Shown here: positions 10,784 to 60,350 of the stretch, piece after piece
How the letters are laid out: every line of letters begins with the position of its first letter
Numbering within the stretch: the first letter of the stretch is position 1
DNA from: Patellaria atrata CBS 101060
Lineage: Eukaryota > Ascomycota > Dothideomycetes > Patellariales > Patellariaceae
Length of the DNA stretch: 64,000 nucleotides
Direction of reading: 5' to 3'
Assembly (NCBI GenBank): GCA_010093705.1
Contig: MU006093.1
Coordinates: 553,557 to 617,556, forward strand
Program-made: the position numbers and the translations under genes
The notes under the pieces: generated by a model
The model's input: the letters and a program-made list of their open reading frames with translations, nothing else
The model's database searches: none
What the model was told of the DNA's origin: nothing

Positions 10784-11819
10784 ATGTCTAGAAATTCTTT
10801 TTCATTCCCGCCTCTACCAGCAGGACCACCTACCACATACAACTGGTATCAAGCACTGATAGATCATCCGGACTGTCAGGGAGATCCTGTAAGTTGTCTT
10901 TGACTGGCATCTAGGACTACTGCATTATAAAACCTATGGCATTAATGAACTTTTCTTTCAGCAGAAGATACAGGAAGCATACAGTGCATTCCGATCTCAG
11001 AACTACAGAAATGCAGTTCAAAGTTTCACCTCAAGGTCTCCCTCTGCTCCGGTATCGGATACAACACTCATTAGCCACTTGAAAAGGCAGAAAATTCTCA
11101 AAAGCCACGGTGTAGAGGATAGCATGAATCATTCAAAAGTGGGCGATAATGAAAGAGAGACCCAAAATGTCAATTGCCTCGTTGTTTGGCTACGTCCCAG
11201 CGCCGCTGTCCTGGATATTGTGATGAAATTGCAACTTAGAATTGCTGAGATGGTTGATGGTGATCTTCATATGATTCCTCTGGGAGACATGCATATTTCT
11301 CTCTTAGAACTCTCCCATCGGCACACTGTCACTCACTTGGAAGACGTAGCTAAGAAGATTGGAGAAGCTACACTGCTTAACATTTTGGATTATCCCTCCA
11401 AGCACTCTTCGAAACCTCGCCTCGTTGCTCCGCGGATAAATTTCGACAAAGCGGGAATAGCGTTGAGCTTTCTACCGTCGCAAGAAGATGATTATACGTA
11501 CCATCACCTGAGAAACGATATGCACAAACTGGCGCTACAAACCGGCATAGAGATTGATACGTGTTATACGGCACCTACAGCACATATAACATTCGGTCGA
11601 TTCGTTGATACGACGAATTTTCGAACCGAAGTAGATATGAGAAAGTTTCTTGACCTAGTTGAGAACTTGAATACCGAATTAAGCACTGAATATGGGCTCG
11701 AAAACGGATCCCCAAAATTTGAATGGATAGTAGCCAATGAACTAAGTGCAGAGCTACAGTCAGGTTATGTGAAATTTGGAAGAGCCAGAGAGAAGGCAAC
11801 ACTTCTCGGGCGTAGGTGA
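10784..11819 (+). CDS. 2H phosphoesterase / RNA ligase-like protein
   Basis: Two exons are inferred, 10784-10888 and 10962-11819 (320 aa), joined by a clean GTAAGT...TTTCTTTCAG intron. The protein begins MSRNSFSFPPLPAGPP. The 2H fold is marked by two HxS/T motifs: MHISLLEL (about residue 145) and AHITFGRF (about residue 242). In this superfamily the paired His and Ser/Thr residues act on cyclic phosphates or 2',5' bonds, for example in tRNA-splicing cyclic phosphodiesterases and 2'-5' RNA ligases. The region between is mixed alpha/beta. The precise substrate cannot be told from sequence. No organelle signal is obvious. The acceptor could alternatively fall 3 nt later, at a second CAG. Confidence 0.85.
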
Positions 11820-12041: not shown

Positions 12042-14298
12042 CTAAACCAACGTAAACGATTCCAATTTCACATTTCTCGCTTTCAGTGCATCTGGTAACA
12101 TTCTTGGATCCGAGTTCATGGTTTCTCCTGTCTCCTTGTGTCGGAAATAATCGTATACCTGAGGGTCATCGGCATCAGGTTTATGATCAAATCTTTCCCA
12201 GTCCTTTATTATTCCAAGTCGCGGATCATCGTCAGTGACCTTATGAGTCTCTTTATTATGGAAGCGGTATTTATATCGATTCCCATAGTCTCTGAACATC
12301 TGAACCTCCCATGGCTGTGGCAATGGCCCGAGAATACTGAAGGCGTCTTTTAAACCATCAACATAGCATTCGCCTATGACAATAAAAGTCTCAGGCTCCT
12401 TCTCTCTAAGCACAACTGGGACGTCGCAACCTAGGAGAACGCACAGAAAGTCGCCTGAGATGCAGATTCATTAGTATCACTCGATCAATTTCGTCAAAGG
12501 ACCTCTTACCAACTTGAGTGTCTGGTGGCGCCAATGCGACATAGCCGTCCCCCGTTTCGATATACGCGTGCCCTTTACAAAATTCAATGGTTTGGCGGAC
12601 ATGGTGGTTTGCTATGACCGGGTTGCTTGAAGGAGTATCTTCTTGCTTGCTGTCTTCTTCTAAGAAGTGAAGCCAATCAGGCTCCCACTCATCAAATAGG
12701 GGGTATATCCGTTCCCAACCTGCCCAGCGTTCACGAACCCTCCCTTTCCGAAGGGTGATTAGATGGGCATGCCTCCTTGCCCTCGCATCATCAGAATCAG
12801 ACAAAGCGGTCGTATTAGGTGTACGTTTTGGTCCCCACGTGCGGATCACTGTAAGAGGATGGTCATTTCCATCAAGTAGCGGACTGGACACACTAGTGAC
12901 GATTGAACCCCTTACACCTAGTACACGAAGGATATTCGGCGCCTCGTATGCGAAATGTGCGCGAGAATGACCCGCAGAGAACTGCCCACTACATGGGAAT
13001 TTTCTAGCAAGTTTTGCGGTGAGATCTGGCACCCACGAAGGCACATTGATCAATCGTCCATATTGACAAGTCCTTTGAATTAGCTCCAGCCTTTGAACAT
13101 GGTTCATATATACCAAGGTGGTTTCGGTATATACTTGTGGCACAGAAAGAGAATAGTCCGGTCGAATCTTTGCTGCCAGTCTTTTTGGAGTTAACCCAAG
13201 GATACCGTAGACATAATCCCTTGGATCAGTACATCTTCTCTTGTCTGGCAAGCGTACAACACGGTTGAAGGGAAGTCCTACGGACGGATTCGTAATCTTA
13301 GCTAAGAACCTCAATCTGCTTTCTATCTTCAATGGGGTATAGTGATTTTCTTTGAAACATGTAGCTGCTCGACGGAACAGCTTGAACATGATGGTATCCT
13401 GACCACACTGCATAACAGCATCCGGGTTTGCCAATAATATTTCCTGAATTATCCACACACGATTGAACCACTCTCGGTTAAGAAGCAAGTCGATAGCATC
13501 CCAAGTTTGAGTGCAAGAACAGACCTTAATTCTCGGATCATTCCAATTTCTCTCCACAGCATCCGGTGAGGGGCATAGTGAACCAGTCTCCAACAGTTCG
13601 ACTTGTTTCCCAATGTATTTTATTGTTTCCAGCGCCTCGTGGCTTGAATCTGATTCTGGTCCAAGCCAGGCAATCACACGAGAAGCAGACGAGTATATAT
13701 CAGTCATTCGACGTACTTGGCTCTCTCTTTCTTTAAAATTATTTTGGTCGATGCAGATAGCATCTATCCATAATATGCGAGATGACGTTGGATTGCGGAG
13801 GTACGACAGTGCTAGATGCAATCCTTTTCGAACTTCTAACTCCTTCAGTTCGACAGATTCTCCTATTGTAGTTTCTCCCACCAATAGACTGTCATGCTCG
13901 CTGGACTCGCCCCATACATAGGACAGAGCCTCATATCCTGTTTCGCGCAGTCTCACGTCGTCTTCGAAGGCTGTGTAAGACGAAGGTGGATCAATACTTG
14001 CTGAAAAAGCCCACTGCCAGCGGCCGGGGTCCGGTTCACGGGGATCCTCGATTATAAACCGCTCCTCTACAGTGACATGTGCCCGTAACGGCTCAGAGAG
14101 TTTTCGGTTCAGCTCCTGCAAGGACAACTCTGACTTTGCTGTTTTCCTCCATTCGGCGAGGCTTGCAGAGAATATTCGAATACGGATCTCTTCGTCTACC
14201 TCTCCCTTTACAAGCTCAACGAGACGGATATCAGTTGACGGGTTCAGCAGAGGTGAATAGGTGTACTTTTCCAGCGGACGAGGCTCTGTGTCCGCCAT
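12042..14298 (-). CDS. HET-domain (heterokaryon incompatibility) protein
   Basis: Two exons are inferred: 14298-12510 and 12454-12042 (733 aa). The open frame extends 10 codons upstream, but only from a TTG, so the ATG at 14298 is chosen. The HET domain is clear: GYEALSYVWGES, a long alpha region with LALSYLR, RILWIDAICIDQNN, and an IYSSASRVIAWLGPES stretch. The C-terminal half carries the part common in these proteins; the splice rebuilds VGDFLCVLLGCDVPVVLR followed by GECYVDGLKDA. HET proteins can trigger cell death when hyphae of unlike genotype fuse, though most family members are untested. No NACHT, WD40 or ankyrin partner domain is present. No obvious signal peptide or membrane segment. 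Confidence 0.9.
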
Positions 14299-15554
14299 TT
14301 CTCTGAACCAATTCACTGGTGGAATCAACGAAACTTGTTCAATCCTAGAGGGGTTGCAGTTATGGCGACGTATAAAAAGTTCAGGTTTAACTTTTCAAAG
14401 GTGAAGCTTAGGGATGAAATATCAGAGATCCCAGCCGCTTCCCGCTGAAGTAGGGATTGGGGGCCAACAAGGCTATGTGTGGGGTGATCATGAGGGGTAC
14501 ATAATGAGGCTCCAGGCGCTATCTGTGTTTCTCACCTGTCCCAGTACGATCTAGACGTATATTCGCGGGTCACCAACATTTACAAATAGAAAGGAAGTGT
14601 GTACTTCCGTACTAGTCGAGTAACTACGCAAAGTTGACAGTTAATATTCATTATAGCAAATATAGGATCGAGGGAAGCCTAGATTGTCATTTAGCATAAG
14701 AAATACTCTATGTCTTAAACAAAAAGAGCGTACGAGTTGAAAATCCAGTTGGTGGTTTTCAGATTTTTCGCACCTTCAGGGGTTGCAATAAACAACAAGC
14801 ATGAGAAACCGCTTATCCACAAGTAGATATATCCCGAGACAGCTGGTTTTAGCGTCCGTTTAGTTTGATCCTCAAAAATACTACCCGTCTATATTTACTT
14901 TCTAAGTTTCGCCCACAAGTTTTCCTCTAATTCACCGTTTACATTATGGTTTAGACGAGAATGAATTGCAGACTTTTGAATAGCTGGTAGAACCAGTCAT
15001 TAATCTCAGTTCAATTAATAAACTACTATAAGTCTTTTTATAGGACTAGGAATTAAGCAAAAGAAGATTGAAATTAGGAAAAAATAACAAAATGAAACTC
15101 GCACTCGTGAGAGGGACGTCTTACTTGAATCGCCTGGGCATTTTTGGTAATCACAGTAAAATTTCAAAGTATGAGGATGCCACGGAGCCTGTTCTTCTTC
15201 ATCTGACGTAATAACTGAGTTATATCACTATCTACAGCTCACTAAGCGCACGTATGCTGTCTCAACTTATCCATTTTGTGGTTTCATGGCAAACAACACC
15301 ATCGATGTTTAAATTAGCTATGTAGTCATAAACTAAGTCATGAATTGCTAAAACTCATCTAGCTTTTTCATCGTGTATGCGATGATCTAATAACATACCC
15401 CACAAGGGTTGGGGAACTGCCATGTATACGCACTAGGCATTCACATAATCCCAAAAAATATGCTTTTTCCCATGTACCAATACGTCTAGTGACGGACCAA
15501 ACCATACTTACAAAATACAAATGGGCATCTCACTGAACTCTCAATATTTCCTGA
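14299..15554. other. Intergenic 1.26 kb
   Basis: Contains the HET gene promoter on the left and the 3' flank of the next gene on the right. From about 14640 to 15110 the sequence is AT-richer than its surroundings but not clearly RIP-like. No ORF, repeat or RNA gene can be supported. Confidence 0.4.
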
Positions 15555-22143: not shown

Positions 22144-23864
22144 CTAATGCATCTTCTGTCTCGCCAACCACAATCCTACACCCTCCCTCGCCTGCTCGCC
22201 TCCCCAAACTCCAGCATCTCCACCCCTCCTCCACTCCTCCGAAGTGCCCTCCTCACCAACACCCCTCACGGCCTCGCCGAGGATGACCTCCATATCCCTC
22301 CTCTGGCTGCTGGTCCAGCGTCTCACAAAGCCCACCGGATCTCTCGCCATGGAGCTGAAAAAGGCGTGCTTCGCCTTCGCGTCGTGGATCGCTTGGACCG
22401 CTTCCGCTAACTGGGTGTCGAGGGTTGAGATGGTTTGCAAAGTGGACAAATAGATGGGCGAGTGGGTTTGTTGGAGATAGAGGGTGCGGAGGGGATCGGT
22501 GGCGGGGACGCGGATGTCGTAGATTGTCGCGGGGGGGTGGGGCTGCATGGTGATGTAGTCTTTGTCGACGCGTATGGTGTAGGAGAGGGTTAGTGGAGGG
22601 AGGGCGGTGAGGTGGGGGAGGACGGCGTCGGGAAGATAGGGGAAGAAAAGGCTTTCTGATTTGAAGACCTGGATGGGGGTTAGCGGGATTTAAACATGGA
22701 GAAGAAGAGTTAGTGAAAAGGGGTGGTCGGGCCGGGAAGGGGCTAAATAAGCGACGTACCGCTTTGAGACGAGCATCACAGTGGATGCGCCGCGTTTCTT
22801 CGTCTTCTTGCAAGCCCATCGCTTTGACGTAGTTCCAGATGTTCATCATGACACCGGCGCGGTCATCTTCTTCGGTGTCGAGGAGTTCGGCTAGCTCTTT
22901 ACTTAGGCGGTAGCGTTCAGGAACTTCGTCACGCACGAGGTTTATGGTTACATTGATGTTCTCGTCGCTCTTGCGCTCGAACTCAAGGGTATCGAAGTTA
23001 GCTTCTGGGGCAGGGTTGGGGACGTTCGGACGCGGGGGGACGGGTTTGGTCCAGTCGATAGAGGTGAAGTTGTCGGGTTGCACCGACTTAGAACGGTCGA
23101 AGTCAATTGTGATCTGTTTAAAGAAATGGGAGAGCTTCGTGCGCTCTGGGATGGTTGAGGAATGCGACGGGGTTGCGGGCTTTTTTGTTTCGTCGCCAGT
23201 GGTGTCCATAGCCTCGCCATTCGCTTTCTCTTTCTCATCTGCGCTTTTTCCCTTCTCATTTGAAGTGCTATCTTCATCTATTAGCCTTCCTTCGATCTTC
23301 ACGCGATAAGTAGCTTGCGATTCGCTCCCAAAGTCGAACGCATCTGGATTCATGCCACTTTGCTGCCATGGTTGGTTTTCTGCGGTATTTGATATCCATA
23401 TCCTTAAAGTTTTGTAGCCTTTAGTTGTGCGATTCACAGAGTCTTGAATATCCAGCCTCTTCCTCATCATAACTGCATCCAACCTCTTCTCTACATCTCG
23501 AAGCGCCCGGTACCGTTGCACACCATCTCCAATCACCAGCTCCTCCACACCATCAGGAATGTTCTTATCGGTAGGCTTTTTACTCTGGCGTTTGATAAGC
23601 TCTCGGCGCTGTGCTTCCATCTGTTGCTGCTGTTGCAACTGCTGTTGCGACATTGCGGCAGGAGGATGCGGACCACCGGCAACCAGAGGACCTGGACGTC
23701 GCAAAGTTTGACTCAGGTCAGCCCATTTGATCATATTGAAGAACTTATCTATACAGAGTACAACAGGGGAACGTGATATCAAGGAAGGGGTTAACGTTAA
23801 GCTGTGCAGTTACTTGGAAAGAGGTACCTGGACCTTTCCGGGGAAAATTGTAGCGAGCTTGCAT
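22144..23864 (-). CDS. SWI/SNF- or RSC-complex subunit with SWIB domain (Snf12/Rsc6 type)
   Basis: SMARCD-type subunit of ATP-dependent chromatin remodellers. Three exons are inferred: 23864-23828, 23691-22760 and 22668-22144 (497 aa). Exon 1 begins MQARYNFPRKG and joins in phase to GPLVAGGPHPPAAMSQQQ. That start fits the family better than an ATG lying inside intron 1. Family features: a Gln-rich N terminus, SKKPTDKNIPDGVEELVIGDGVQRYRAL, a beta-rich middle with TLRIWISNT, an acidic Lys/Glu linker, then the SWIB region (about 275-350) with YRLSKELAELLDTEEDDRAGVMMNIWNYVKAMGL. The C-terminal part (VFKSESLFFPYLPDAV, SPIYLSTLQTISTLD) matches the helical tail of Snf12. The short N-terminal intron is inferred; the second is well supported. 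Confidence 0.9.
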
Positions 23865-32150: not shown

Positions 32151-33174
32151 GGTGTTCAATGAATGAGGATACAAATTGCCTTACGGACGTGGTCAGAGAG
32201 TGGCACGGTAGTCTACGGTTAATAATGGGAATGGGCAAAAATCTCTCTAATTCGGGTGCTTAGTAGCTCGAAATGAGGTGGTTGCATGTCTCATGCTCTC
32301 ACCTCTCAAAGGGAGCAGCTGTTTCGTGGAGATATCGTACTCCTACGGATCTAAGGTTGGGAGGCCGGGTAATCGAAAGCTATAACATGATTGAAATCTC
32401 CTTTGAAAGTGATAATGCCCGTGACTAACGTGCAACCAAAAGAGTAACTTGAGCATCAACTCCGTTCATGAGCAGAGGTGCATATCTTAGTCTTCCCTTA
32501 GAACTACCTTCACGGGTTGAAACGATCCTACGGGTTGGTCTAAGGAATCGTTTACGGAATACTGTGATTCTGTACTTGATGTCTACTCCTCCTAAAAATA
32601 GTGACTTAGAGGTTAAAGCATTCAACACGACGGGAATGATTGAAGTTGAAAAAGCGTTCAAGTCCAGACGAGAGCTGGCTAAAGTGTTGACGCTAAGATC
32701 CTTCTAATATTTCCCGTCTGATACCCAAAGAGGAACAGTGCCTTGGTTCCTGATCTAATGCTCCTTACCCGTTGTGGCGTAAGGGTAATTTAAGAATGCC
32801 ATCAGTTTCACGCGCTGTCATATATCGTCATCGTGTGTACTTCTAATCTTTGATATACCTTAGTCGCGTGAGGTAGGATACTTCATGCTCTATTATATAT
32901 CCTTTACCTTTAGCACTTTCTTAATATCAACCGGCAAGTGGAATGCCGAGATCAGATGGACGATAATAACTAACGCCTTCTGCGTCGAAATAATGGTAAG
33001 GTGGCCCAGTGAAAGACACCAGGATCATAAGCAAGGAACCTACCAGCGCAAACAGTCATTGAGAACTCGAGAAATACCACGTACGCCTTTGTAATTCAAT
33101 TATCAAGATCCTTGATAGTATCATACTGATTGCGGACGCGTTCTATTTCTATAGTATTTTAACATCATGTCGCA
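32151..33174. other. Intergenic between SDR and glycosyltransferase
   Basis: This gap separates two genes transcribed in the same direction. Overlapping ORFs at 32425-32661 (-) and 32468-32707 (+) carry no motif that I can name, and either could be chance. A tiny upstream ORF lies at the end (see next entry). No other feature seen. Confidence 0.35.
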
Positions 33175-33178
33175 ATGA
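33167..33178 (+). promoter_or_regulatory. Three-codon upstream ORF overlapping the main start (ATGA)
   Basis: ATG TCG CAA TGA encodes Met-Ser-Gln-stop. Its stop codon overlaps the main ATG at 33175 by three of four bases (A-TGA/ATG-A). If the transcript begins upstream, a ribosome ending here would lie on the main start. This could lower initiation or couple it to reinitiation. A second in-frame ATG at 33187 could also be used. Confidence 0.6.
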
Positions 33179-36100
33179 CTACCACTATGGAAAACGTGGG
33201 CGATTCTACCACGATGACAAATATACCTCCCGGAAACTCAACTTTTTCCCAGAAGTCCCCAAAACATGGAATGTCCTTTAAAAACAACAATTCGTTGGGC
33301 CTGGATACTCAACTAGATGCAACCGTGTCGCAAGAGATGGCTGATGGGCATACAACTCCTCAAAAGTCCGCTACAGCACCAGCTGCCTCAAGACCCGCAT
33401 TAGATAAGAAATGGGCAACTGAAAGACCACAGGCTAGTACTAGGGCATCATTGCTGGGAATGAAGAGGAGAGGTACCGCACAACTACCCAAGCCAAATAG
33501 GGCATATACGTACAACTTCGAGCCGTCGAGCGATTCAAGTTCGTCGTCTTCGAGTGATAGCGAAACGTCAGACACAGAGGACGGACTTAATGGGACAACA
33601 TCCCGTAAACATAGAACGGAGAACTATAACAAATCGAAAATCAAAAAGAAAGATCGTAGCTCAGACCCATACTCCAGATTTTCTGTTGGCAACGAGCAAT
33701 TTAGAACGAAAGGCAAGGTCTCAAAGAGGGATGGTAGACTCAAGATCTCGGTTAACGAGACGGCAAATCGTGGATATCTCGCAAAGGCTCTCGGTACGGG
33801 CATTCGCCATCATTTATATCCAGGCGGAGAAAAGGATGAAGAAAAGGATATCACGTCACCTGTCACAAGGGAAAAGATTGAGGAATTGGAACAGCCTATT
33901 GAAATTTACGAAGATGAACGCTCTCCAAATCCGAAACTTAATATTGTAGTTATCGTAATTGGCTCAAGAGGTGATATACAGCCATTCCTCAAAATAGGAA
34001 AGGTATTGAAAGAGGAATACGGGCATCGTGTTCGGATAGCTACACACCCGGCGTTTAAGAATTTTGTGGAGCAGGATTCTGGATTAGAGTTCTTCTCAGT
34101 TGGTGGAAACCCTTCGGAACTGATGGCTTTCATGGTCAAGAATCCCGGATTGATTCCATCCATGGAAACTGTCAAAGCTGGCGAGATAGGTAGACGGAGA
34201 GCATCTATGTATGAGATGTTCAATGGGATGTGGAGAGCTTGCATCAATGCGACGGACGATGAGAGTGATAAAGTGAATGCCAAAATGAGTAAGTCAATAA
34301 CGTTCTGGCTAAATCTATTTATCTAACAGGATCATACAGTGGGGGAGAACCATCCATTCATCGCAGACGCAATCATTGCAAACCCTCCCAGTTTCGCACA
34401 CTATCACATAGCTGAACGACTTGGTGTACCACTCCACATGATGTTTACGTTTCCTTACACGCCTACCACACAGTTTCCTCATCCTCTCGCGAACATTAAA
34501 GCGAGCAACGTTGATCGAGAGTACACCAACTTCATGAGTTACCCCCTAGTAGAGATGATGACATGGCAAGGTCTTGGCGATCTTGTGAATAAATTTCGGG
34601 TGAAGACTCTTGGATTAGAACCTGTGTCGACCTTATGGGCCCCTGGTCAGTTATATCGGTTAAATGTACCGTATACATATATGTGGTCACCAAGTCTCGT
34701 ACCAAAGCCTCCCGATTGGGGTCCTGAAATCGATATTGGCGGTTTTGTATTCTTGGACCTGGCATCATCTTTCAAACCATCTCAAGAGCTTATGGATTTC
34801 CTCAACGGTGGCGAAGTTCCCGTGTACATAGGTTTCGGAAGTATTGTTGTTGATGCCCCCGATAAGTTCACTAAGATGATATTCGACGCGGTGAAAATGG
34901 CCGGTGTGAGAGCGTTGGTAAGTAAAGGTTGGGGAGGCCTTGGTGATGAGGACAACACCCCAGATAACATCTTCATGCTCGACAACACTCCGCATGACTG
35001 GTTATTCCCTCGTGTCAGTGCGGTTGTACACCACGGTGGAGCAGGCACGACCGCTATCGGGCTGAAGTGTGGCAAACCAACAATGATCGTGCCTTTCTTT
35101 GGCGACCAACCATTCTGGGGAGCGATGGTTGCTCAGGCTAAAGCTGGAGCTCACAACTGTATCCCATACAAGAAATTAACAGCTGAGAAGCTTGCTGAAG
35201 GAATCAAGCAATGTCTAACCGACGAAGCAAGAGAGAATGTTGGGAGAATCGCCGAAAGTATTGCAAAAGAAGGTGACGGTGCACAGAATGCGGTTCGCTC
35301 ATTCCACAGAAGCTTGCGGCTTCGCGGAGGTCGGTCCATGAGGTGCTCAATTCTTGATGACAGGATTGCGGCATGGCAGTTGAAATCCATACCACTGCGA
35401 TTATCACCTTTGGCAGCGTATATATTAGTGGAGCGGAAGAGTATTAAATGGAACGACCTGCGCTTATTAAGGCACCATGACTGGAACGATTTTGAAGGAC
35501 CTGGAGAACCTCTCACGGGCGGCACATCCGCCGTCATAGGCACGGTTACTGATGCTGCGAAAGGCGTGGGACTTGTCCCGTTGCACATGGCTCGCTCAGT
35601 GAAGCACCGTGTCGATCACAATAAAAAGAAGAAGCGACACCAAGAGCGGAAAGCCAAACTCGTGACAGCCAACCAAGATACGAATGGCGCCCTAAATGGA
35701 CAGGATCGTCCACATTCGAAAGAAGGTGTTGAAGAAGTAGAAGAATCTCTTTCCCTTCAGACCCTTAACTCTCGACCACATCCCCAACGAGCGGAGACAA
35801 TGGAATCTGCTCTCTCCGCTGACCCTTCCGAGAACATTGCCGAACAACTTGCTCATGACACCTCACATGGTTTCAAGAAGACCGGTGTAGCAATCGCCAA
35901 AGCACCCATGGACCTGTCACTTGCTATCGCTCAAGGCTTCCACAATGCACCTCGCCTCTACGGTGACGAAACGGTGCGTCGGCCGGTCCGTGTTGAGGGA
36001 CTTCATTCCGGTCTCCGCGCTGGCAGAGACGAGTTTGTGTACGGTATCCATGACGGTGTCAAGGGATTATGGTGGCACCCTTATCAAGGTGCGAAGGAGA

Positions 36101-36897
36101 GGGGCGTACTGGGTTGTTTAACTGGAGTTGGAGTCGGAATAGGGGGCGTGGTCCTGAAGAGCAGTGCAGCTATGTTCGGACCTGCGGCATATGGGCTCAA
36201 GGGCCTGCATAAGGAGCTCCGAAAGAAGAATAGCCCAACAGGGTACATGCGCAGAGTAAGGATCATGCAGGGTCAGAAAGATTTGCAGACGCTGCAGCGA
36301 GTGAGGTCAGAAATAGAGAGGCATGAGGAAAATGTGCAGGACGATGAATTGGCCAGAGTCAGGCAGCAGGTCACTCATGCGTGGGAGATCGTGACTGAGA
36401 TTCTAGAGATGAAGCACAAAAGAATTGTCCAGGGCGGCCGTTTTAGGGGCCATTTTATGGTCAAGAAGGCACAGAAGGAGTGGGAAGACAATGACGCGGC
36501 GGAGAATATTCAGACAGCTGAGATGGCGCTCGATGCACGAAAGCGAGGACTCGATTTCTACGAAGTCTTCAAAAAGCATAGGGAGGATGTTGCGAAGGCG
36601 AACGCAGCGAGAATGCCAACGATGGAAAGTGGTAAGCAACCGATTAAGAAGATCGGAGCTGGCACAGGGCAGACACAAGACAGGAAACTGGTGTATGGGG
36701 ACGATAAAGAGACAAGAAGGCGTGATCTCAACGCGTTGATGGAAGCTACAGACAAGATGCAAGAAGTCAGCGGTGTGGAAAGGGAGGTCAGACGTGATGT
36801 AGGTATGCGGGATGCTGCTCAGCAGAAGAACGAGACTGCGACTATGGATTTTGCGAAGCCAGCTGGGGAGGGGATTAATGGGTATGCGAGATTGTAA
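33175..36897 (+). CDS. Large UDP-glycosyltransferase (sterol-glucosyltransferase-like)
   Basis: Two exons are inferred, 33175-34288 and 34340-36897 (1223 aa). The first ~250 residues are disordered and Ser-rich. A GT-B fold follows (about 255-690): LNIVVIVIGSRGDIQPFLKIGKVL at the N-terminal Rossmann half, IIANPPSFAHYHIAE, WSPSLVPKPPDWG, YIGFGSIV, and the UDP-sugar signature [31 protein letters not shown]. This is the CAZy GT1 fungal sterol-glucosyltransferase type. The PH and GRAM domains of Atg26/Ugt51 are not seen. Instead a long C-terminal half contains a Gly-rich stretch (CLTGVGVGIGG) and long charged helices (about 1000-1200). The intron skips a CAG at 34327-34329 and uses that at 34337-34339, as required by the frame. 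A lipid acceptor is likely but not provable. Confidence 0.92.
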
Positions 36898-48888: not shown

Positions 48889-51800
48889 TTAGCCTCCGTA
48901 TACCATCTCCCTGAATCCTACTGGGACAGTCCAGTTGTGAGCCTGACAAGCGCGAATATACGCCTCAACTGCTTCTCCAACATTGTAGTCGCGGGGTGGA
49001 CCATTCTCCAACCGTGCAGGCCTCGGTTCTAGCGAAGATATGGCAAGGCGGACTTGAAGAAGTACTGACTCAATCGAAGAAACCGCAGACCATCCGTTGT
49101 TTGTGAGCAACTATTCAAAAGTTAGCCATATTCATATCGTCAACAAGGAAGGGATAACTCACTTCCATACAAAGAGCTCCACCAGCAGTGATATGTCCAC
49201 CACCGCCAGCCATGAAGCTCAGAAACCTCGGCCGAACGACGCGTACGAATGGTGGACTCATGGGGTAGTCACCACCAAAACGAAGCTCAAGAACAACACT
49301 CGTGATCTTTCTATCCTTCATGTCTCTAGCAAGAGGAAGATGGGGCTCGAATGAATGCAACTCGATTATCCACTGATACAGATTCTCGCAAAGCTCGGGA
49401 TCGACATACCAACCCAACTCATGTAGTGGAGTTGTCTCCTGTGTTTTAATTAGAGCTTTGAGATCTGCTGTGAGCCGCTTAGTGGCATGGATAGTCGCAA
49501 AAGCTGGTGGCTCGAGCCGCTGTAGTGTGCTTGAGTCCAAAGATCCTGGAACAAAGTCTGTCATGGCTTTTTCTGAAGCATTGCTTCCTATCGCAGCAGA
49601 TTCCTCCTCAAACAGGATCTCTAGATCCTCAATATCTGTATCAATGCTTTGAGTATCATCATCATAATCGTCATTAACAACAATGACTGTGTTAACTGTA
49701 TCATCATCATCGAGGACAATTGGATCGTTTGTGGTACCCGAATTTTTTGACTTTCCCTTGTCCTTGCTCTTAAAATTTCCAGCTGATCCTGGTGCTGGTA
49801 CTCGGTTGATGGTCACCGGCCTACGGGACTTGGAAACGGCACTTATGGGGATTACGATCGGTTCTCGGACACCAGTAGGTCTCATGATTGGATCTTGTTT
49901 GTACTCAATTGCCGGTCTGGATTCCTGAAAGTTCTTTGTTTCGGAGCTCTGGACAAAGAGATATCGCGTTTGAATCCACTCTAGTTGAGAAACAACGAGA
50001 TGGGGATCCTTCGAGACGTATTCACTCGGTGCGTTGACAATTTCGTTCAAGGCCAGTGCGCATTTGATTTTCAATTGACTGTTCGGCCAAATATACCCGT
50101 AGGCTTGTGACTGGAAGGAATACATATTAGAATATCCCATGCTAGTTTGATATTGCAGGGAATGGTACACCCCATTTCCGAAAGCACGGCCATGAGCAAT
50201 ATCATTGAAATGAAGACCTTCGCGGATGATGCTATGCCAATTCGCCAAAGAACTACCGTGCCAGGCAAAAAGAGTGGGATATGTCAAGCCCAGCCGAGCT
50301 GAAGTTTGCCGGACGGAATTCAAGAACCGCCTCTCTTTATCAGGCGCACCCATGGCGAAACGGAACTGGACCCAACCGCTCATCCCATAGACGCGTTCCT
50401 CAGCGTTCTTGTTCTTAGGTGCATTTTCAGTGACTTCCAGGTCGTCGACTTGAACGATGCACGCTCGATTAGAAGCTATGACCCATCGCAGAATCCCCAA
50501 AGCAGCCGGGGAGATGCGCTCTACCCATTTCTGCAAATCTTTCATGGGGTTCTGTAGAAGCCAACGTCGCATCTCCTGCACAGAAGGTAGCGTGTCTAGC
50601 ATATCACAAATAACATCTTGCTTTTGACGGGCGCTCATGAGATCAAAATTGATGTCATATATGTAGAAACTCGCAGGTACCAATCCTGGGGTCGTTGCAG
50701 GGGTGATTAATGGCCATTGCTCTACTGGGGCAGATAGGTTGCTTGGTCCATATGATCCCACATAGTGCTGCCTCGGATCATACGTATTTAGGGGTATAGG
50801 TCCAGTAACCTTTACAGTTGGGAAGAATGTAGTCTCAACTACACGACAGTGTAGGTGTGGCTCTTTCGAATTCGGTAACTGAATCACAATCCAGCTCCCA
50901 GGAGATACGGGACACGTCGCTTGAGTGTCAAAAATGAGCTCAAGGCGAGATCTATCAAATCGCATCTCATACACCTTTGGTTGTGTGATATTTCCGGCGG
51001 TAGCTGAAGGTGTCAGACTCGTCACAGATAATCCATTCGTGGGTGCCGTATAGTAACCTGGTACAGCGTAGTTTGCCTTCGGCGGAAGGGGTGGAGGAAC
51101 TAACAATGCCAGGCCGGATGGGAAATCTTTGAGTTTCAGGGAGCGCGCACTAGCGTAACAGAAACTGACAAGTAGGTCGACCACGTGAGGTTGCGCTATG
51201 ATCTCATGCTCGATACTTGGTCCAAATCCCAAACTCATATATTGATATAGACAGAGTGGACTATCGCAAACGTACGGCTTAAGCGCTTCGAGATCGTTTT
51301 CTAGCTTTGTGTGGCAATTCAAGCAAAATTCCGTACATCGAACAAAATGCCGAAGCATATATTGCATCGCAATTAGAGGAAAGGAGTGAATATGAGACAT
51401 ATTGTTTTCTCGTATGTGATCTGCGTTGACTATCGAAGGATATGCTGGATTGATTTGTTCATCGATGATGTACTTATCATTCAGCATATCACTGTTCGTA
51501 GTATGTATTCCCATATGTTCCTGATAGAATGCCTCCGCACCTCGCCACGTCATGCCCATGTATCGAGTGTTTATAAGGTAGATCAATCGTTCATTCAAGA
51601 GGCCATTAAGAGGTTTAGAGATGAATGTTTCTCGGAAATCCTCCAAGTAAGGATCTTCGGTCTTGGAACGAGAGGAATTCTTAGTGATATCACTAGTGTG
51701 CTTCGATAACTCTGCGAAGATCCGAATCGCTTCGCCCAGGGACGGTTTGTACGTTGGACCTATGGCAACCCGCATTTTGACCTCATCCTTACTCCCTCCC

Positions 51801-52537
51801 GTTAACATTTCCATAGGTTTATAGCCATGTTGATAATGCAAAATAAGCACCAAGTACTCTTGCGGTTTGACTTGCCAAGCATGCATGGCTTCTTCTGAAA
51901 TGCCTAGTTTTGCCACTCTGCAAGAGACTGTCACAAAACAAGGACCACCGTCTAAGAGGGAGGCAAGATGCCCAATCTTAAATCCTGCATCCTTTGCTGT
52001 CTTCAGGTCTCGACGTATGCGACTTCTTAAGGAAGACAGAATGGGCGCATTGGATGTAAAGTATTTGTACGTGCTTGCATCTGGTGCAGTGTTTCCAGCC
52101 CTATTCTCCTCCTCCTCGGAATCGCTAAAACCGTAGTTCTCACTTTCGGAATCTGAACGGTCGGCCCCCTCTTCCTGACTATCTGGCATGGGTGTATCAC
52201 CATCTCTGTCCCGGGAGTCTGCCGAATCCATCGACCTAGACACGAGTTCAAGTAGTTGTATTACAGATAGACCGGAAGTGCGGGTCAAGCCCATGAGAAC
52301 ATTCGATATCGAGCTTGGAGCTCCATCTTCAGCAAAGACGTGATAATCGTGAGTTGAGGGATAATCAGAGACGTCGGGTATTATCGCAGAAATAGTGTAT
52401 GATAGTCCCTCTTCCTTGGGAGCAAGATTGAATGTGAACTGTCCATCATCTTCTCCCTTTTGTACGTTAGATATGTAAGGAATATTTACACCTTGGATAG
52501 CAATTTTTAAGTCGGCAATGAAAGATTTTCGCGGCAT
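48889..52537 (-). CDS. PARP - UBE2Q-type E2 fusion protein
   Basis: Two exons are inferred, 52537-49163 and 49110-48889 (1198 aa). Residues ~1-400 hold a divergent N-terminal region with an acidic segment. A Cys pair cluster follows (CLNCHT ... CDSPLCLY, about 415-445). The ADP-ribosyltransferase region runs from about 640 to 880: WRIASN-like lead, FAWHGSS with His near 760, and GNGVYHS with Tyr near 791, the H-Y pair that binds NAD. The third catalytic position is unclear (ALNEIVNAP), as in mono-ADP-ribosyl PARPs. An acidic linker (DDDDTVN, DDYDDDTQ) leads to the C-terminal E2 domain: YPMSPPFVRVVRPRF, then GGALCMELLTNNGWS with the active Cys near 1123, an exact UBE2Q-like site restored by the splice. 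Such fusions are known from fungi. The start is the first ATG (MPRKSF). Confidence 0.93.
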
Positions 52538-56232: not shown

Positions 56233-57021
56233 AGAGACCGAATTTGATAACATGGTACGGAGCAAGTTGTAGCTTGAGACTTGAGACTCCGACCGTATCG
56301 AATATCTAATAGGTAAGGATACTATGTCGAAATATCTAAGAATCACCTCTTTTTTAAATAAGGGAGATCTCGAGATACTTTGTATGTACCTTACGCATAG
56401 TATCTGAGAGCGGATGGTCGTCGGAAAACTCGGGTGGCAAGCGCCAAGACAGATTTCCAGGGGCGTGAACAGGTTTCACAAAAATTATGTGCTGTCGTAG
56501 TGTTTCTCAACTCCTCCAACCTCCTCATAGTTCCTTATCTAGAAAGCCCGGTAAGGCAACCTCAACGCTTCTGTGCAATCAGAACAGCGTGTATGCCATA
56601 GGGCTAAGGTCTGAAATCCAGGAACAGAAGTACAGGACGTGAAAATACAATCTGAAAATAGATACCCAATCATACCCTTGCGGGTAATGAGCAGACTAAT
56701 ATGGATCGAATCTTCCCTTTATACGCAAATCACCGTTAGGCGCTTGTTCCCGTGGTTCAGGGTAGTATCAAGGTTCTATTTCATTGCATCATACTGTTCT
56801 TTGTATGTCAACTGTCTCAAAATGCTATATCTCGTGGCACTGTGGCAGTCGCTCTCCGTACGCCGAAATCAACTGTTCGTTCTAGAAAAGGCAAGGGCTT
56901 CTTTATTATTTAGTATCTTCGCATTCGCTCTAAAAACCGCCTAAGTAATTCAACCCTAAGTCTACATTCTTTACAAACCTATGAATATCACGTATGAAAC
57001 ATATAGGGACTGACTTTAACT
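56233..57021. other. Intergenic, no gene seen
   Basis: 789 bp between the oxidase pseudogene and the GH64 gene. The ORF at 56639-56944 starts with a hydrophobic run but has no family signature; I treat it as chance. No repeat or RNA gene can be supported. Confidence 0.35.
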
Positions 57022-58290
57022 ATGTGCAGCAATATGGGCTCCTTACTCGACAAGATCAGGAACCGACTTGGCCTATTCAAAAGAACTAACACGCCACAAC
57101 CACCCCAAGAGAATCAACGGCGAGGCGATGACCAGCAGGTTCCTATGCCTAAGGTGACTTCCGGGACTCTACGAGTAGATCTTGCCAACCAGACATCCTC
57201 CAACAGAGTTTATGCATATATTACCGGCCGCGCTATTGACAACAACAATGCTCTATTCCTCCTAAGATCGGACGGCAAAACACCCTTCTATCCATCATCT
57301 CCTTCTGCTATCGGCTCCAATTTGCCTGCGGACATTGCTATTTCACTCGGCGGCCCTGGGAACACTATACATTGCATTATACCTCGAATTGCTGGAGGTA
57401 GGATTTGGTTCTCTGTTGACCAACCTCTCGTATTCAAACTCAATCCCGGTCCCGCGCTGGTTGAGCCCTCCGTGACAAATCCCACTGATCCCAATATCAA
57501 CATCAACTGGTCATTCGCAGAATTCACGTACAATTCTTTCCAGCTATTTGCAAATATCACGTACGTTGACTTCGTTGGTGTACCTATCGCCCTAACCCTT
57601 ACCGGTGATGGTCACCCAACTCAACACGTCTCTGGGATGCGCGAAAACGGAGTAGACCTTGTCGCCAACGGACTGAGAGCTCAAGAAGCTAAAGACGGTC
57701 GGAAGTGGAGCGCGTTGATTGTTCAATCAGGAGGTCGTAACCTTCGTGTTCTGAGCCCGAATAATGTTCACATGGCAAACCCCGACCTATTCAAAAATTA
57801 CTGGGACCCATATGTTGACCAAGTATGGAATCATTACCGCTCCGTTGACGTTGCTATCAACACTCAGGCAGGCTATGGAAACGTTAGAGGTAGGGTAGCA
57901 AACAACAATCAACTCGCCTTCCAAGGAGCCGGTGGGTTCAATAGACCGTCCGCGATGGATATCTTCAGTAGCAATACCGGTCCCTTTGCTACTGGAAGTA
58001 ATCAGGAGAGGAATACGGTCATTCCGCGTCTCGCTGCTGCGTTCAATCGTTCCACATTGCTGCTATCCAATAACCACCCCAACGGAGTTCGAGCAGATCA
58101 GTATTATAAGAACCCCATAACGAACCATTACTCTCGCATTGTGCATGAAACGAACTTGGACAAGAAGGGTTATGGGTTCCCTTATGACGATGTCACGCCT
58201 GATGGAGGGGAAGGACAGGAAGGGGCTGTTGCTAGTGGAAACCCTACGTTGTTCACTCTTACTGTTGGTGGCCGTAACGCTCATACGTAA
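57022..58290 (+). CDS. GH64 endo-beta-1,3-glucanase (thaumatin-like), no signal peptide
   Basis: Single exon, 422 aa. Family GH64 cleaves beta-1,3-glucan, releasing pentasaccharides. The fold is visible from residue ~45: LRVDLANQTSSNRVYAYITG, GGRIWFSVDQPL, INWSFAEFTYN and YVDFVGVPIAL. The Glu in FAEFT (residue ~167) and the Asp in YVDFV (~183) are 16 residues apart, exactly as the Glu/Asp pair (E154/D170) of the Streptomyces enzyme, so it is probably active. The C-terminal part carries VIPRLAAAFNRSTLL and the NHYSRIVHETNLDKKGYGFPYDDV motif with Asp. No N-terminal signal peptide is seen: the start is MGSLLDKIRNRLGLFKR, basic and amphipathic, so the protein may be intracellular. An upstream ATG (57022) adds four residues. 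Role in wall turnover is inferred. Confidence 0.93.
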   Translation: MCSNMGSLLDKIRNRLGLFKRTNTPQPPQENQRRGDDQQVPMPKVTSGTLRVDLANQTSSNRVYAYITGRAIDNNNALFLLRSDGKTPFYPSSPSAIGSNLPADIAISLGGPGNTIHCIIPRIAGGRIWFSVDQPLVFKLNPGPALVEPSVTNPTDPNININWSFAEFTYNSFQLFANITYVDFVGVPIALTLTGDGHPTQHVSGMRENGVDLVANGLRAQEAKDGRKWSALIVQSGGRNLRVLSPNNVHMANPDLFKNYWDPYVDQVWNHYRSVDVAINTQAGYGNVRGRVANNNQLAFQGAGGFNRPSAMDIFSSNTGPFATGSNQERNTVIPRLAAAFNRSTLLLSNNHPNGVRADQYYKNPITNHYSRIVHETNLDKKGYGFPYDDVTPDGGEGQEGAVASGNPTLFTLTVGGRNAHT

Positions 58291-58832
58291 ATATTTCCGG
58301 TATTAGCGGAGGTGGTCGGTCAGTTCCGACATCTTGTATAAGAGGGCTATTGAGCGAGCATTTTATGGTTACTTTATTGATTTCATATGATAGCAAGCGG
58401 TTTGGAATTTCACTTCTTCTTGGTCCCCTAGCTTCCTATCCTTCCATTCTATTCGTTATGTCCAAACTCATGCCAAATTGACGACAACAGCTCTTCAGAT
58501 TTGCGATATTTTACCTTTGTGGTTCGAAATATATTTGCCGTCATATATGGTACTGTATAACTATAACATATATACAAGTACCTTAGAAGATGACGAGGCT
58601 TGATAGAAATGACATTATATTTCTATATTAATCGTGCAAGTTTGCTTTTTGATGATGTGGTTCTGACTTCTAACTTCTAACGAACGCGCGACGCGTCAAG
58701 ACGGGAATGGCTGGTATGAAACCCTTTTGGAGCTTGGGTCGCATGGTGGAGTGAGCTTCACGATTTTCGAAAGTCCGAAATGTACTCTCCGGCTCGAAAG
58801 AACTTCTTTCCAATTCAAAATCATAATTCAAA
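58291..58832. other. Intergenic, no gene seen
   Basis: 542 bp between tandem genes, AT-rich near 58510-58640. It holds the GH64 3' end and the promoter of the seryl-tRNA synthetase gene. No ORF or repeat supported. Confidence 0.35.
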
Positions 58833-60350
58833 ATGAAAGTCCTCAAATCATCGTTATTTAGCTGTATTTCCTGTAGGAATCATCTCTTTAGGACCTTTGA
58901 GCTACCGCCAATGCACACTTCCATGCGATCATATACCCGACCGTCAATTGCTCCGAAACCGTATCTCGATATAAAACATATTCGTCAGAACCCAGGACTG
59001 TATGCTCAGAACTGCATTGACCGTAATTACAAGGCACAAAGCAATCATTCATGGCGGATACTGGAGCTATTCGAGCAATGGAAATTATGTCAAGAAGCTG
59101 GAAGAGGACTGCGAGAGCGAAGCAATGCTCTTCGCGCACAACTATCTTCTCCGTCCGAGTCGTCCTCTACGACCAGAGACAGCATACTGCAAAAGTCGAG
59201 AGAAGTTAAGGGCAAATTAGGAACAATTGAGCAGAAAGAGAAGTCCCTGCAGGATGAAATGGAATACCTTGCATTGCAGCTTCCCAATCTCAGTAGCGTA
59301 CAAACTCCGACTGGAAACGTCCCTGAGGTCTTGGGATACATTAATGAGCCCTTGAAGCTAGAATCCACTGGAACGGACAGAATATGCCGGTCGCATGTAC
59401 ACATAGGATCAGAGCTCAGGTTGATGGATTTTGCTGGAGCCGCAACCGCATCCGGTTGGGGCTGGTATTATTTGATAAACGAGGGCGCTCTCTTGGAACA
59501 GGCTCTTGTTCAATACGCGTTAAATGTTGCTATGCGGAGAGGATGGAACGTTGTATCACCGCCGTCGATCGTATACTCCCACATTGCCGCTGCCTGCGGC
59601 TTCCAGCCAAGAGACCAGCATGGGGAGCAGCAAATCTATAGCATAGAGCAAGCAGAAAAGGACAAAGCAAAACCACCACTGGTACTCGCCGGTACGGCCG
59701 AAATACCATTGGCCGGAATGAAGGCAGGTGAATATCTTGAGGAGTCCGAATTGCCATTAAAAACAGTAGGTATTAGCCGGTGTTATAGGGCGGAGACTGG
59801 GGCCCGTGGTGTGGATACCAAAGGCCTCTACAGAGTTCATGAATTCACAAAGGTCGAATTATTCGCTTGGACTTTGCCGGACCTACCTTCGGAGGAGCAC
59901 TTTACAACGAATGACGAATTACACTCAACAGTCGTTTTCGATGAGATAATATCCATACAGAAAGAGATCCTTGAGAACCTTGGACTTCACTGTCGGATTC
60001 TGGAAATGCCCTCGGCTGACCTTGGCGCAAGCGCTGTCAGAAAACAAGACATTGAGGCTTTCTTCCCTTCGCGGAGAGCAAAGGACGAAGGTTGGGGTGA
60101 AGTAACTTCAGCTTCTATCTGTACAGACTACCAAAGCCGCAGACTGGGGACAAGAGTGCGGTTCTCAAAACAGTGTAGGAAATTTGACTTCCCTCATACT
60201 GTTAACGGAACTGCTCTTGCTGTACCACGAGTAATTGCCGCCATACTGGAAAAACACTGGAGTGAGAACGACAAGTCGGTGACTATCCCTGAGGTATTAA
60301 GACCATATATGGGTGGCGTTGAAGTAATACGAAAGCGAAAATTATCATAA
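58833..60350 (+). CDS. dia4: Mitochondrial seryl-tRNA synthetase
   Basis: Class II aminoacyl-tRNA synthetase that charges mitochondrial tRNA-Ser. Single exon, 505 aa. The first ~40 residues (FSCISCRNHLFRTFELP) are Ser/Arg-rich with few acids, a likely matrix presequence. The next ~110 residues are a long helical hairpin, the tRNA-binding arm of SerRS (LDIKHIRQNPGLYAQN to KLGTIEQKEKSLQDEM). The catalytic domain follows: PPSIVYSH, LVLAGTAEIPLAGMKAGE, motif 2 ISRCYRAETGARGVDTKGLYRVHEFTKVELF, and motif 3 NGTALAVPRVIAAILE near the end. SICTDYQSRR is the usual serine-binding neighbourhood. The C terminus is short with RPYMGG, typical of the group. The cytosolic SerRS has a different extension, so the mitochondrial assignment is preferred. 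Start ATG has the usual A-rich leader. Confidence 0.95.
   Translation: MKVLKSSLFSCISCRNHLFRTFELPPMHTSMRSYTRPSIAPKPYLDIKHIRQNPGLYAQNCIDRNYKAQSNHSWRILELFEQWKLCQEAGRGLRERSNALRAQLSSPSESSSTTRDSILQKSREVKGKLGTIEQKEKSLQDEMEYLALQLPNLSSVQTPTGNVPEVLGYINEPLKLESTGTDRICRSHVHIGSELRLMDFAGAATASGWGWYYLINEGALLEQALVQYALNVAMRRGWNVVSPPSIVYSHIAAACGFQPRDQHGEQQIYSIEQAEKDKAKPPLVLAGTAEIPLAGMKAGEYLEESELPLKTVGISRCYRAETGARGVDTKGLYRVHEFTKVELFAWTLPDLPSEEHFTTNDELHSTVVFDEIISIQKEILENLGLHCRILEMPSADLGASAVRKQDIEAFFPSRRAKDEGWGEVTSASICTDYQSRRLGTRVRFSKQCRKFDFPHTVNGTALAVPRVIAAILEKHWSENDKSVTIPEVLRPYMGGVEVIRKRKLS

What the first reader, a model, noticed from the sequence alone, without database searches (positions are those of the whole stretch)
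48889..52537. PARP fused to a UBE2Q-type E2: NAD-dependent signalling and ubiquitin transfer in one chain
Both ends look catalytically plausible. HGS/GVY residues for NAD binding are near 760/791, and the E2 Cys lies in GGALCMELL near 1123, restored by an intron. The extra Cys pair cluster and long acidic linker are distinctive. The fusion architecture itself is known from fungi, but its function is little understood. It raises the idea that ADP-ribosylation and ubiquitination are coupled on one substrate, or that the E2 is charged on ADP-ribose.
Basis: partly seen in the sequence, partly recalled or inferred. Interest (0 to 1): 0.75.

Follow-up and report, generated by a model that had tools for sequence, protein, structure and literature searches.

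The report
Fungal PARP fused to UBE2Q-type E2
This fungal gene encodes one large protein that carries both an ADP-ribose-attaching enzyme and a ubiquitin-attaching enzyme, a combination already known from fungi whose chemistry is still open and which could join the two tags to each other.

Summary
A minus-strand gene (52537 to 48889, one 52-nt intron) encodes 1198 aa with a PARP-type ADP-ribosyltransferase (ART) domain (H760, Y791) and a C-terminal ubiquitin E2 (Cys1123) whose best solved-structure matches are human UBE2Q2 and UBE2Q1 (1e-21, 1.2e-17). A CX2CX15CX4C motif at 405-429 fits the published PARP6/8 pattern. The protein belongs to a published kind: Clade 6A of Citarelli 2010, the PARP6/8 homologues with UBCc of Perina 2014.

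Added here: (1) the E2 is UBE2Q-type (a name absent from both papers' text), lacks HPN, and keeps the His and a nearby Trp of UBE2Q1's YHW triad, with His for Tyr, so hydroxyl-directed, ester-forming ubiquitin transfer is the likelier chemistry; (2) the third ART catalytic position reads His, not Glu, so mono-ADP-ribosylation is expected; (3) the acidic ART-E2 linker holds three SIM-like motifs.

Most likely mechanism: mono-ADP-ribosylation, possibly on the linker, then ubiquitin transfer in cis. Neither activity nor their coupling is shown. No orthologue was found in the collections available, and single-sequence structure models failed. A new member of a known kind that makes a timely question testable.

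The parts
49163..52537 (-). Exon 1, aa 1-1125
   Evidence: Open frame from the first in-frame ATG; chance of 1151 open codons about 8e-28.
49111..49162 (-). Intron, 52 nt, GT-AG, two codons after the E2 active-site Cys codon
   Evidence: GTGAGT donor and GAATAG acceptor; its removal gives UBE2Q similarity on both sides. No RNA evidence.
48889..49110 (-). Exon 2, aa 1126-1198 and stop
   Evidence: alone matches UBE2Q2, E 0.0027.
52226..52537 (-). N-terminal region aa 1-104, at the place of the published FPE (RWD-like) domain of Clade 6A
   Evidence: Position only. No Pfam hit there, no meaningful PDB sequence hit, AF2 pLDDT 42 with strands then two helices, no significant fold match. Inconclusive.
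51251..51325 (-). C4 zinc-finger-like motif CX2CX15CX4C, aa 405-429
   Evidence: Fits the PARP6/8 pattern CX2CX9-19CX4C of Perina 2014; 1 of 2000 shuffles.
49943..50275 (-). ADP-ribosyltransferase (PARP) domain, about aa 755-865; H760 at 50258-50260, Y791 at 50165-50167, third triad position H846 at 50000-50002
   Evidence: PF00644 E 4.6e-9; PARP16 alignment of aa 755-835; H846 by alignment with the PARP16 tail, 4 of 2000 shuffles score as well.
49538..49822 (-). Acidic linker between ART and E2, aa 906-1000
   Evidence: Sequence; 23 acidic and 11 basic residues in aa 896-1012.
49595..49723 (-). Three SIM-like motifs starting at aa 939, 951 and 972 (PIVLDDDD, VIVVNDD, LEILFEEE)
   Evidence: Only the first fits the published SIMa pattern; 3 cores by a looser count, 0 of 5000 segment shuffles reach 3, but that count was written after seeing them.
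49163..49498 (-). UBE2Q-type E2 domain, first part, aa 1014-1125; Cys1123 at 49169-49171, H1115 at 49193-49195
   Evidence: phmmer to 1zuo and 2qgx; 59 of 157 aligned residue pairs identical to 1zuo.
48925..49110 (-). UBE2Q-type E2 domain, second part, aa 1126-1187; H1183 at 48937-48939, W1185 at 48931-48933

Best explanation
A two-enzyme chain of the PARP6/8-like Clade 6A kind. The ART domain puts single ADP-ribose units on a substrate or on the protein itself, the acidic linker being a likely cis site. The C-terminal UBE2Q-type E2, charged with ubiquitin on Cys1123, then transfers ubiquitin to a hydroxyl close by. The most interesting candidate acceptor is the ribose of the newly placed ADP-ribose, giving an ester-linked ADP-ribose-ubiquitin mark without a DELTEX E3. 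Shown by sequence: both domains, their order and key residues. Inferred from relatives: mono-ADP-ribosylation and hydroxyl-directed ubiquitin transfer. Inferred from architecture alone: that the two reactions act on one substrate in sequence. The confidence given is for the weaker claim that both halves are catalytic and functionally coupled, with hydroxyl-directed E2 chemistry.
For: ART: PF00644 above cut-off, His and Tyr present, His instead of Glu at the third position by alignment with PARP16, in line with the report that no Clade 6 protein has the Glu (passage); PARP16 is the closest solved ART. E2: best matches UBE2Q2 and UBE2Q1, 59 of 157 aligned pairs identical, Cys present, no HPN. 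UBE2Q1 and UBE2Q2 discharge ubiquitin on Ser, Thr, glycerol and glucose, and UBE2Q1 depends on Tyr343, His409 and Trp414 (passages of PMC10971424); here these are H1115, H1183 and probably W1185. Ester-linked ubiquitin on protein-bound mono-ADP-ribose exists in human cells on Glu/Asp sites of PARP10 (passages of PMC12000418), so the proposed product is chemically real. The acidic linker lies between the two catalytic domains.
Against: No activity data. Tyr343 of UBE2Q1 is His here: Y343F kept discharge, the other YHW mutants failed; His was not mentioned in the passages read. The Trp is 2 residues after the His here and 5 after it in UBE2Q1, so it may not be equivalent. The UBE2Q relative UBE2QL1 was inactive in vitro. 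The UBE2Q1 paper has no ADP-ribose experiment in its text; its one match to that term is a cited title. The PARP1 tail, unlike PARP16, does not place H846 by ungapped score (best register elsewhere, 1326 of 2000 shuffles as good). Structure models failed. Orthologue conservation is untested here.
Confidence: 0.4

Rival explanations
1. Both halves are active but not chemically coupled: the N-terminal parts and the ART domain choose or hold the substrate and the E2 ubiquitylates Ser, Thr or Lys of it, with ADP-ribosylation as a separate regulatory step (for example auto-modification that switches the E2).
For: UBE2Q1 modifies Ser and Thr of peptides without an E3; fusions often mean shared targeting rather than shared chemistry (general knowledge); SIM-like motifs in the linker could give targeting.
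Against: Does not by itself explain why a hydroxyl-directed kind of E2 is the one joined to an ART.
Confidence: 0.3
2. The ART domain is a pseudo-enzyme or binding module and only the E2 is active.
For: No Glu at the third triad position; only a 48-residue stretch of the ART matches the Pfam profile.
Against: His760 and Tyr791, which bind NAD in PARPs (established knowledge), are both present; PARP16, a mono-ADP-ribosyltransferase by name, has Tyr at that position (its role as third triad residue is recalled).
Confidence: 0.15
3. The ART domain modifies ubiquitin or the charged E2 itself, so the fusion blocks or redirects ubiquitin transfer rather than making a mixed mark.
For: ADP-ribosylation of ubiquitin in other systems is known (abstracts listed); UBE2Q1 binds the ADP-ribose-binding protein MavL (passages).
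Against: Nothing in this sequence points to ubiquitin as the ART substrate.
Confidence: 0.1
4. The E2 half is not a working E2, or needs a partner, and serves as a ubiquitin-binding or structural module.
For: Tyr343 replaced by His and the Trp shifted; UBE2QL1 inactive in vitro; UQ_con score just under its cut-off.
Against: The active-site Cys and the block around it (GGALCMELLT..GWS) are shared with UBE2Q2.
Confidence: 0.05

Closest known systems
Clade 6A fungal PARPs (Citarelli, Teotia and Lamb 2010, PMC2964712; passages read)
   Same: Fungal; long N-terminal region, Clade 6 PARP catalytic domain, C-terminal UBCc with active Cys; no Glu in the triad.
   Different: Nothing decisive. The N-terminal FPE domain could not be confirmed here. 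The paper calls the E2 part UBCc; 'UBE2Q' has 0 matches in its text.
PARP6/8 homologues with UBCc (Perina 2014, PMC4245714; passages read)
   Same: CX2CX9-19CX4C motif in the region before the PARP domain; an added UBCc in Ascomycota, Basidiomycota, a moss and a green alga.
   Different: 'UBE2Q' has 0 matches in its text. Human PARP6 and PARP8 have predicted RWD domains (E2-related, typically without the Cys; passages of PMC10450202); no C-terminal E2 is described for them there.
Human UBE2Q1 and UBE2Q2 (PMC10971424; abstract, passages and Discussion read)
   Same: Best solved-structure matches; no HPN; Cys, His and a Trp near the active site.
   Different: No ART is attached; Tyr343 is His1115 here; the His-to-Trp distance is 2 instead of 5.
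MARUbylation, a PARP followed by a DELTEX E3 (PMC12000418; passages read)
   Same: The proposed product: a ubiquitin ester on protein-bound mono-ADP-ribose.
   Different: There ADP-ribosylation and ubiquitin transfer are done by separate proteins; here one chain with an E2 and no E3 domain found by Pfam at E up to 1.
Human PARP16 (PDB 4f0d)
   Same: Closest solved ART by sequence.
   Different: ER tail-anchored and no E2; Tyr at the third triad position instead of His.

Membership tests
Clade 6A fungal PARP (PARP6/8-like with UBCc) | PARP catalytic domain with His and Tyr | tested here: met
   PF00644 E 4.6e-9; H760, Y791.
Clade 6A fungal PARP (PARP6/8-like with UBCc) | No Glu at the third triad position | tested here: met
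   H846 in the best ungapped and local alignment with the PARP16 tail (4 of 2000 shuffles as good). The PARP1 tail alone gives H846 only as second-best ungapped register, and not better than shuffles.
Clade 6A fungal PARP (PARP6/8-like with UBCc) | C-terminal UBCc with active Cys | tested here: met
   UBE2Q2 1e-21, Cys1123 aligned to the UBE2Q Cys; UQ_con just under its cut-off.
Clade 6A fungal PARP (PARP6/8-like with UBCc) | Cysteine-rich motif CX2CX9-19CX4C (PARP6/8) | tested here: met
   CX2CX15CX4C at 405-429.
Clade 6A fungal PARP (PARP6/8-like with UBCc) | N-terminal FPE (RWD-like) domain | tested here: inconclusive
   No hit; weak model and no fold match. No FPE profile on hand.
Clade 6A fungal PARP (PARP6/8-like with UBCc) | Groups with Clade 6A in a PARP tree | not testable with these tools
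   No fungal collection on hand; no orthologue found.
UBE2Q-family E2 | Sequence closer to UBE2Q1/Q2 than to other E2s | tested here: met
   1e-21 and 1.2e-17, next E2 0.00071, among solved structures.
UBE2Q-family E2 | Absence of HPN | tested here: met
   GGHITAGGALC up to the Cys.
UBE2Q-family E2 | Tyr343-His409-Trp414 triad | tested here: inconclusive
   His409 met (H1183); Tyr343 not met (H1115); Trp present but 3 residues nearer to the His. The triad was defined on metazoan sequences.
UBE2Q-family E2 | Hydroxyl-directed ubiquitin discharge | not testable with these tools
   Needs an assay.
ADP-ribose-ubiquitin (MARUbylation) writer | Ubiquitin ester on ADP-ribose made by the enzyme | not testable with these tools
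   Needs an assay.

The most novel reading that the evidence does not exclude
A single-chain writer of ester-linked ADP-ribose-ubiquitin: the ART lays down mono-ADP-ribose and the fused UBE2Q-type E2 ubiquitylates that ADP-ribose directly, with no E3, the enzyme being brought to SUMO-modified targets by three SIM-like motifs in the linker. This would be an evolutionarily separate route to MARUbylation from the DELTEX one.
Probability: 0.2. Interest if true: 0.88.

Novelty: new member of a known kind. Interest (0 to 1): 0.52.

Why it matters
Ubiquitin attached to ADP-ribose is a recently described hybrid mark; in the passages read its writers are DELTEX E3 ligases acting together with separate PARPs. 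A family that has an ART and an E2 of the hydroxyl-directed kind in one chain would be a compact system in which to ask whether the hybrid mark arose more than once. It would also bear on why human PARP6 and PARP8 carry E2-related folds, which a 2025 review calls enigmatic, with roles still to be described (PMC12687431, passage). The question can be settled with one purified protein.

Tried and rejected
Orthologues: the exon 1 protein against viral contigs and genome contigs, and its E2 and ART pieces against viral contigs, gave no relative. No whole genome is held for the window.

Structure: ART aa 640-891 and N-terminus aa 1-110 were folded without an alignment; pLDDT 32 and 42. The ART model was not searched. 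The N-terminal model, searched once against the PDB, gave 10 matches, none below E 3.2. These results say nothing for or against the folds.

RWD at the N-terminus: a strand-then-helix order in the weak model hints at it, nothing reached significance; left open. The NCBIfam hit to a lipoprotein (15.4 bits against a cut-off of 400) is noise. The bacterial promoter and terminator scan found no more than shuffles (5 against a mean of 6.6; 1 against 3.3) and does not apply to a fungus. The other PDB hits of exon 2 (E 0.067 and worse) were set aside as chance.

SIM-like motifs: of four patterns, SIMa had 1 match in aa 906-1000 (68 of 2000 shuffles as many), SIMr none, the two looser core-plus-acid patterns 1 (250 of 2000) and 2 (24 of 2000); the 14 other window frames, 7557 aa, had 1, 0, 3 and 6 matches. 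The stricter joint count was devised after this.

Considered and rejected: that the fusion is a gene-prediction artefact. Exon 1 alone holds the ART domain, the linker and the E2 up to the Cys in one unbroken frame.
Full report
What is there. The window is eukaryotic and by its neighbours an ascomycete (inference): a Zn2Cys6 transcription factor with a fungal-specific domain and a HET-domain protein. No whole genome is held for it. On the minus strand an ATG at 52537 opens a frame that runs to an intron of 52 nt at 49162-49111 and resumes in exon 2, 49110-48889, giving 1198 aa. The stop-to-stop frame of 1151 codons is not a chance event (about 8e-28 at this composition). Exon 2 on its own still finds human UBE2Q2 first (E 0.0027), which supports the splice without RNA data.

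Domains. Pfam gives PARP (PF00644, aa 757-804, E 4.6e-9, above cut-off) and UQ_con (PF00179, aa 1083-1150, E 4.2e-6, 26.8 bits against 27), and nothing else at E up to 1. Against solved structures the C-terminus matches UBE2Q2 (1zuo, 1e-21) and UBE2Q1 (2qgx, 1.2e-17) over about 170 residues; the next E2 is at 0.00071. Of 157 aligned residue pairs with UBE2Q2, 59 are identical. The ART half finds PARP16 first among PARPs (0.0046 with the whole protein, 0.0012 with aa 500-890).

Catalytic residues. H760 and Y791 lie in HGS and GVY and fall in the stretch aligned with PARP16. The phmmer alignments stop before the third triad position. Aligning aa 805-895 with the PARP16 tail (letters confirmed), the best ungapped register and the local alignment both put His846 against the PARP16 Tyr; 4 of 2000 shuffles score as well. 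That this Tyr is the third triad residue, like Glu988 of PARP1, is recalled knowledge. The PARP1 tail (confirmed) is too distant to decide: H846 is only its second-best ungapped register and 1326 of 2000 shuffles do as well, though its gap-penalised local alignment picks the same register. Lack of the Glu is reported for all Clade 6 proteins identified by Citarelli 2010 (passage) and fits mono-ADP-ribosylation.

The E2 active site. Abdul Rehman and colleagues 2024 (PMC10971424; abstract, passages and Discussion read) showed that UBE2Q1 and UBE2Q2 lack HPN and discharge ubiquitin on serine, threonine, glycerol and glucose, and that UBE2Q1 needs Tyr343, His409 and Trp414 around Cys351. In the alignment, Cys351 is Cys1123, Tyr343 (eight residues before the Cys) is His1115 without a gap, and His409 is His1183. 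Trp414 is five residues after His409; here W1185 is two residues after H1183, so its equivalence is likely but unproven. The triad thus reads His-His-Trp. In UBE2Q1, all triad mutants except Y343F failed to discharge on the test peptide; a His there was not mentioned in the passages read. Citarelli's Additional file 13 legend marks a histidine near the Cys of Clade 6A E2s; the figure is not held, so whether it is this one I cannot say.

The rest of the chain. Cysteines 405, 408, 424 and 429 form CX2CX15CX4C, inside the CX2CX9-19CX4C pattern given for PARP6/8 homologues by Perina 2014 (passage); 1 of 2000 shuffles of the protein has such a motif. [quoted passage not shown] whether an RWD follows the finger here was not tested. 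The N-terminal 104 aa occupy the place of the FPE domain of Clade 6A, which could not be confirmed.

A new detail. Between ART and E2 the acidic linker has three hydrophobic cores each followed by acids: PIVLDDDD (aa 939), VIVVNDD (951) and LEILFEEE (972). The first fits the published SIMa pattern; SIMa has 1 match in 7557 aa of 14 other window frames, and 68 of 2000 segment shuffles reach one. A joint count finds 3 such cores in aa 906-1000; of 5000 shuffles of that segment 22 reach 2 and 0 reach 3. That count was written after seeing the motifs, so the number overstates the case. A fourth match, at aa 694, lies outside the linker.

Mechanism. The best reading is a PARP6/8-like mono-ART that marks a substrate or its own acidic linker, with a tethered UBE2Q-type E2 that then adds ubiquitin through an ester to a nearby hydroxyl, perhaps of the ADP-ribose itself. 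That product, ubiquitin on protein-bound mono-ADP-ribose, has been shown in human cells on Glu/Asp sites of PARP10 (passages of PMC12000418), where DELTEX enzymes are named as the only E3s so far shown to make it in vitro. Shown here: domains, order, residues. Inferred from relatives: the two chemistries. Inferred from architecture: coupling. A distant hint that UBE2Q and ADP-ribose biology meet is the reported binding of UBE2Q1 (aa 396-453, which contain His409 and Trp414) by a bacterial ADP-ribose-binding protein (passages); it proves nothing for the fungal protein.

Comparison with what is known. The architecture is in print: Clade 6A in Citarelli 2010 and PARP6/8 homologues with UBCc in Ascomycota, Basidiomycota, a moss and a green alga in Perina 2014. 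This gene meets the four features tested with a clear result; the FPE feature is inconclusive and no tree could be made. 'UBE2Q' has 0 matches in the text of either paper. PMC11354881 finds UBE2Q-type domains among fungi primarily in Ascomycota and Basidiomycota (passage). Whether anyone has linked this fusion to hydroxyl-directed ubiquitin transfer or to ADP-ribose-ubiquitin I can state only for the searches made in a library of open-licence papers: searches listed no title or abstract start saying so (searches list 15 of 48,855 and 15 of 37 papers; of the 14 papers I read passages in four). Three of those are reviews; all three have 0 matches for 'fung', and one mentions 'PARP6/8's enigmatic E2-like folds' with roles still to be described.

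Limits. No orthologue, no usable structure model, no expression data, no species name. Verdict: real, correctly read in outline, a new member of a known kind, worth following for its testable chemistry.

Noticed in passing
   Followed up: partly
window 10893-11819: 308-aa frame with HISL and HITF motifs reminiscent of 2H phosphoesterases (recalled resemblance); no Pfam hit at E 0.01.
   Followed up: partly
window 33163-36897: Two abutting plus-strand frames with glycosyltransferase 28 N-terminal and UDP-glycosyltransferase matches, perhaps one sterol-glucosyltransferase-like gene (name recalled) with an unmodelled intron.
   Followed up: no
window 12406-14394: HET-domain (heterokaryon incompatibility) protein, PF06985 E 7.6e-34.
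   Followed up: no
window 22144-23809: SWIB/MDM2 domain protein on the minus strand (PF02201); the overlapping frame 22144-22689 may be its continuation after an intron.
   Followed up: no
window 57007-58290: Glycoside hydrolase 64 (beta-1,3-glucanase), PF16483 E 3.7e-143, next to a seryl-tRNA synthetase at 58827-60350.
   Followed up: no
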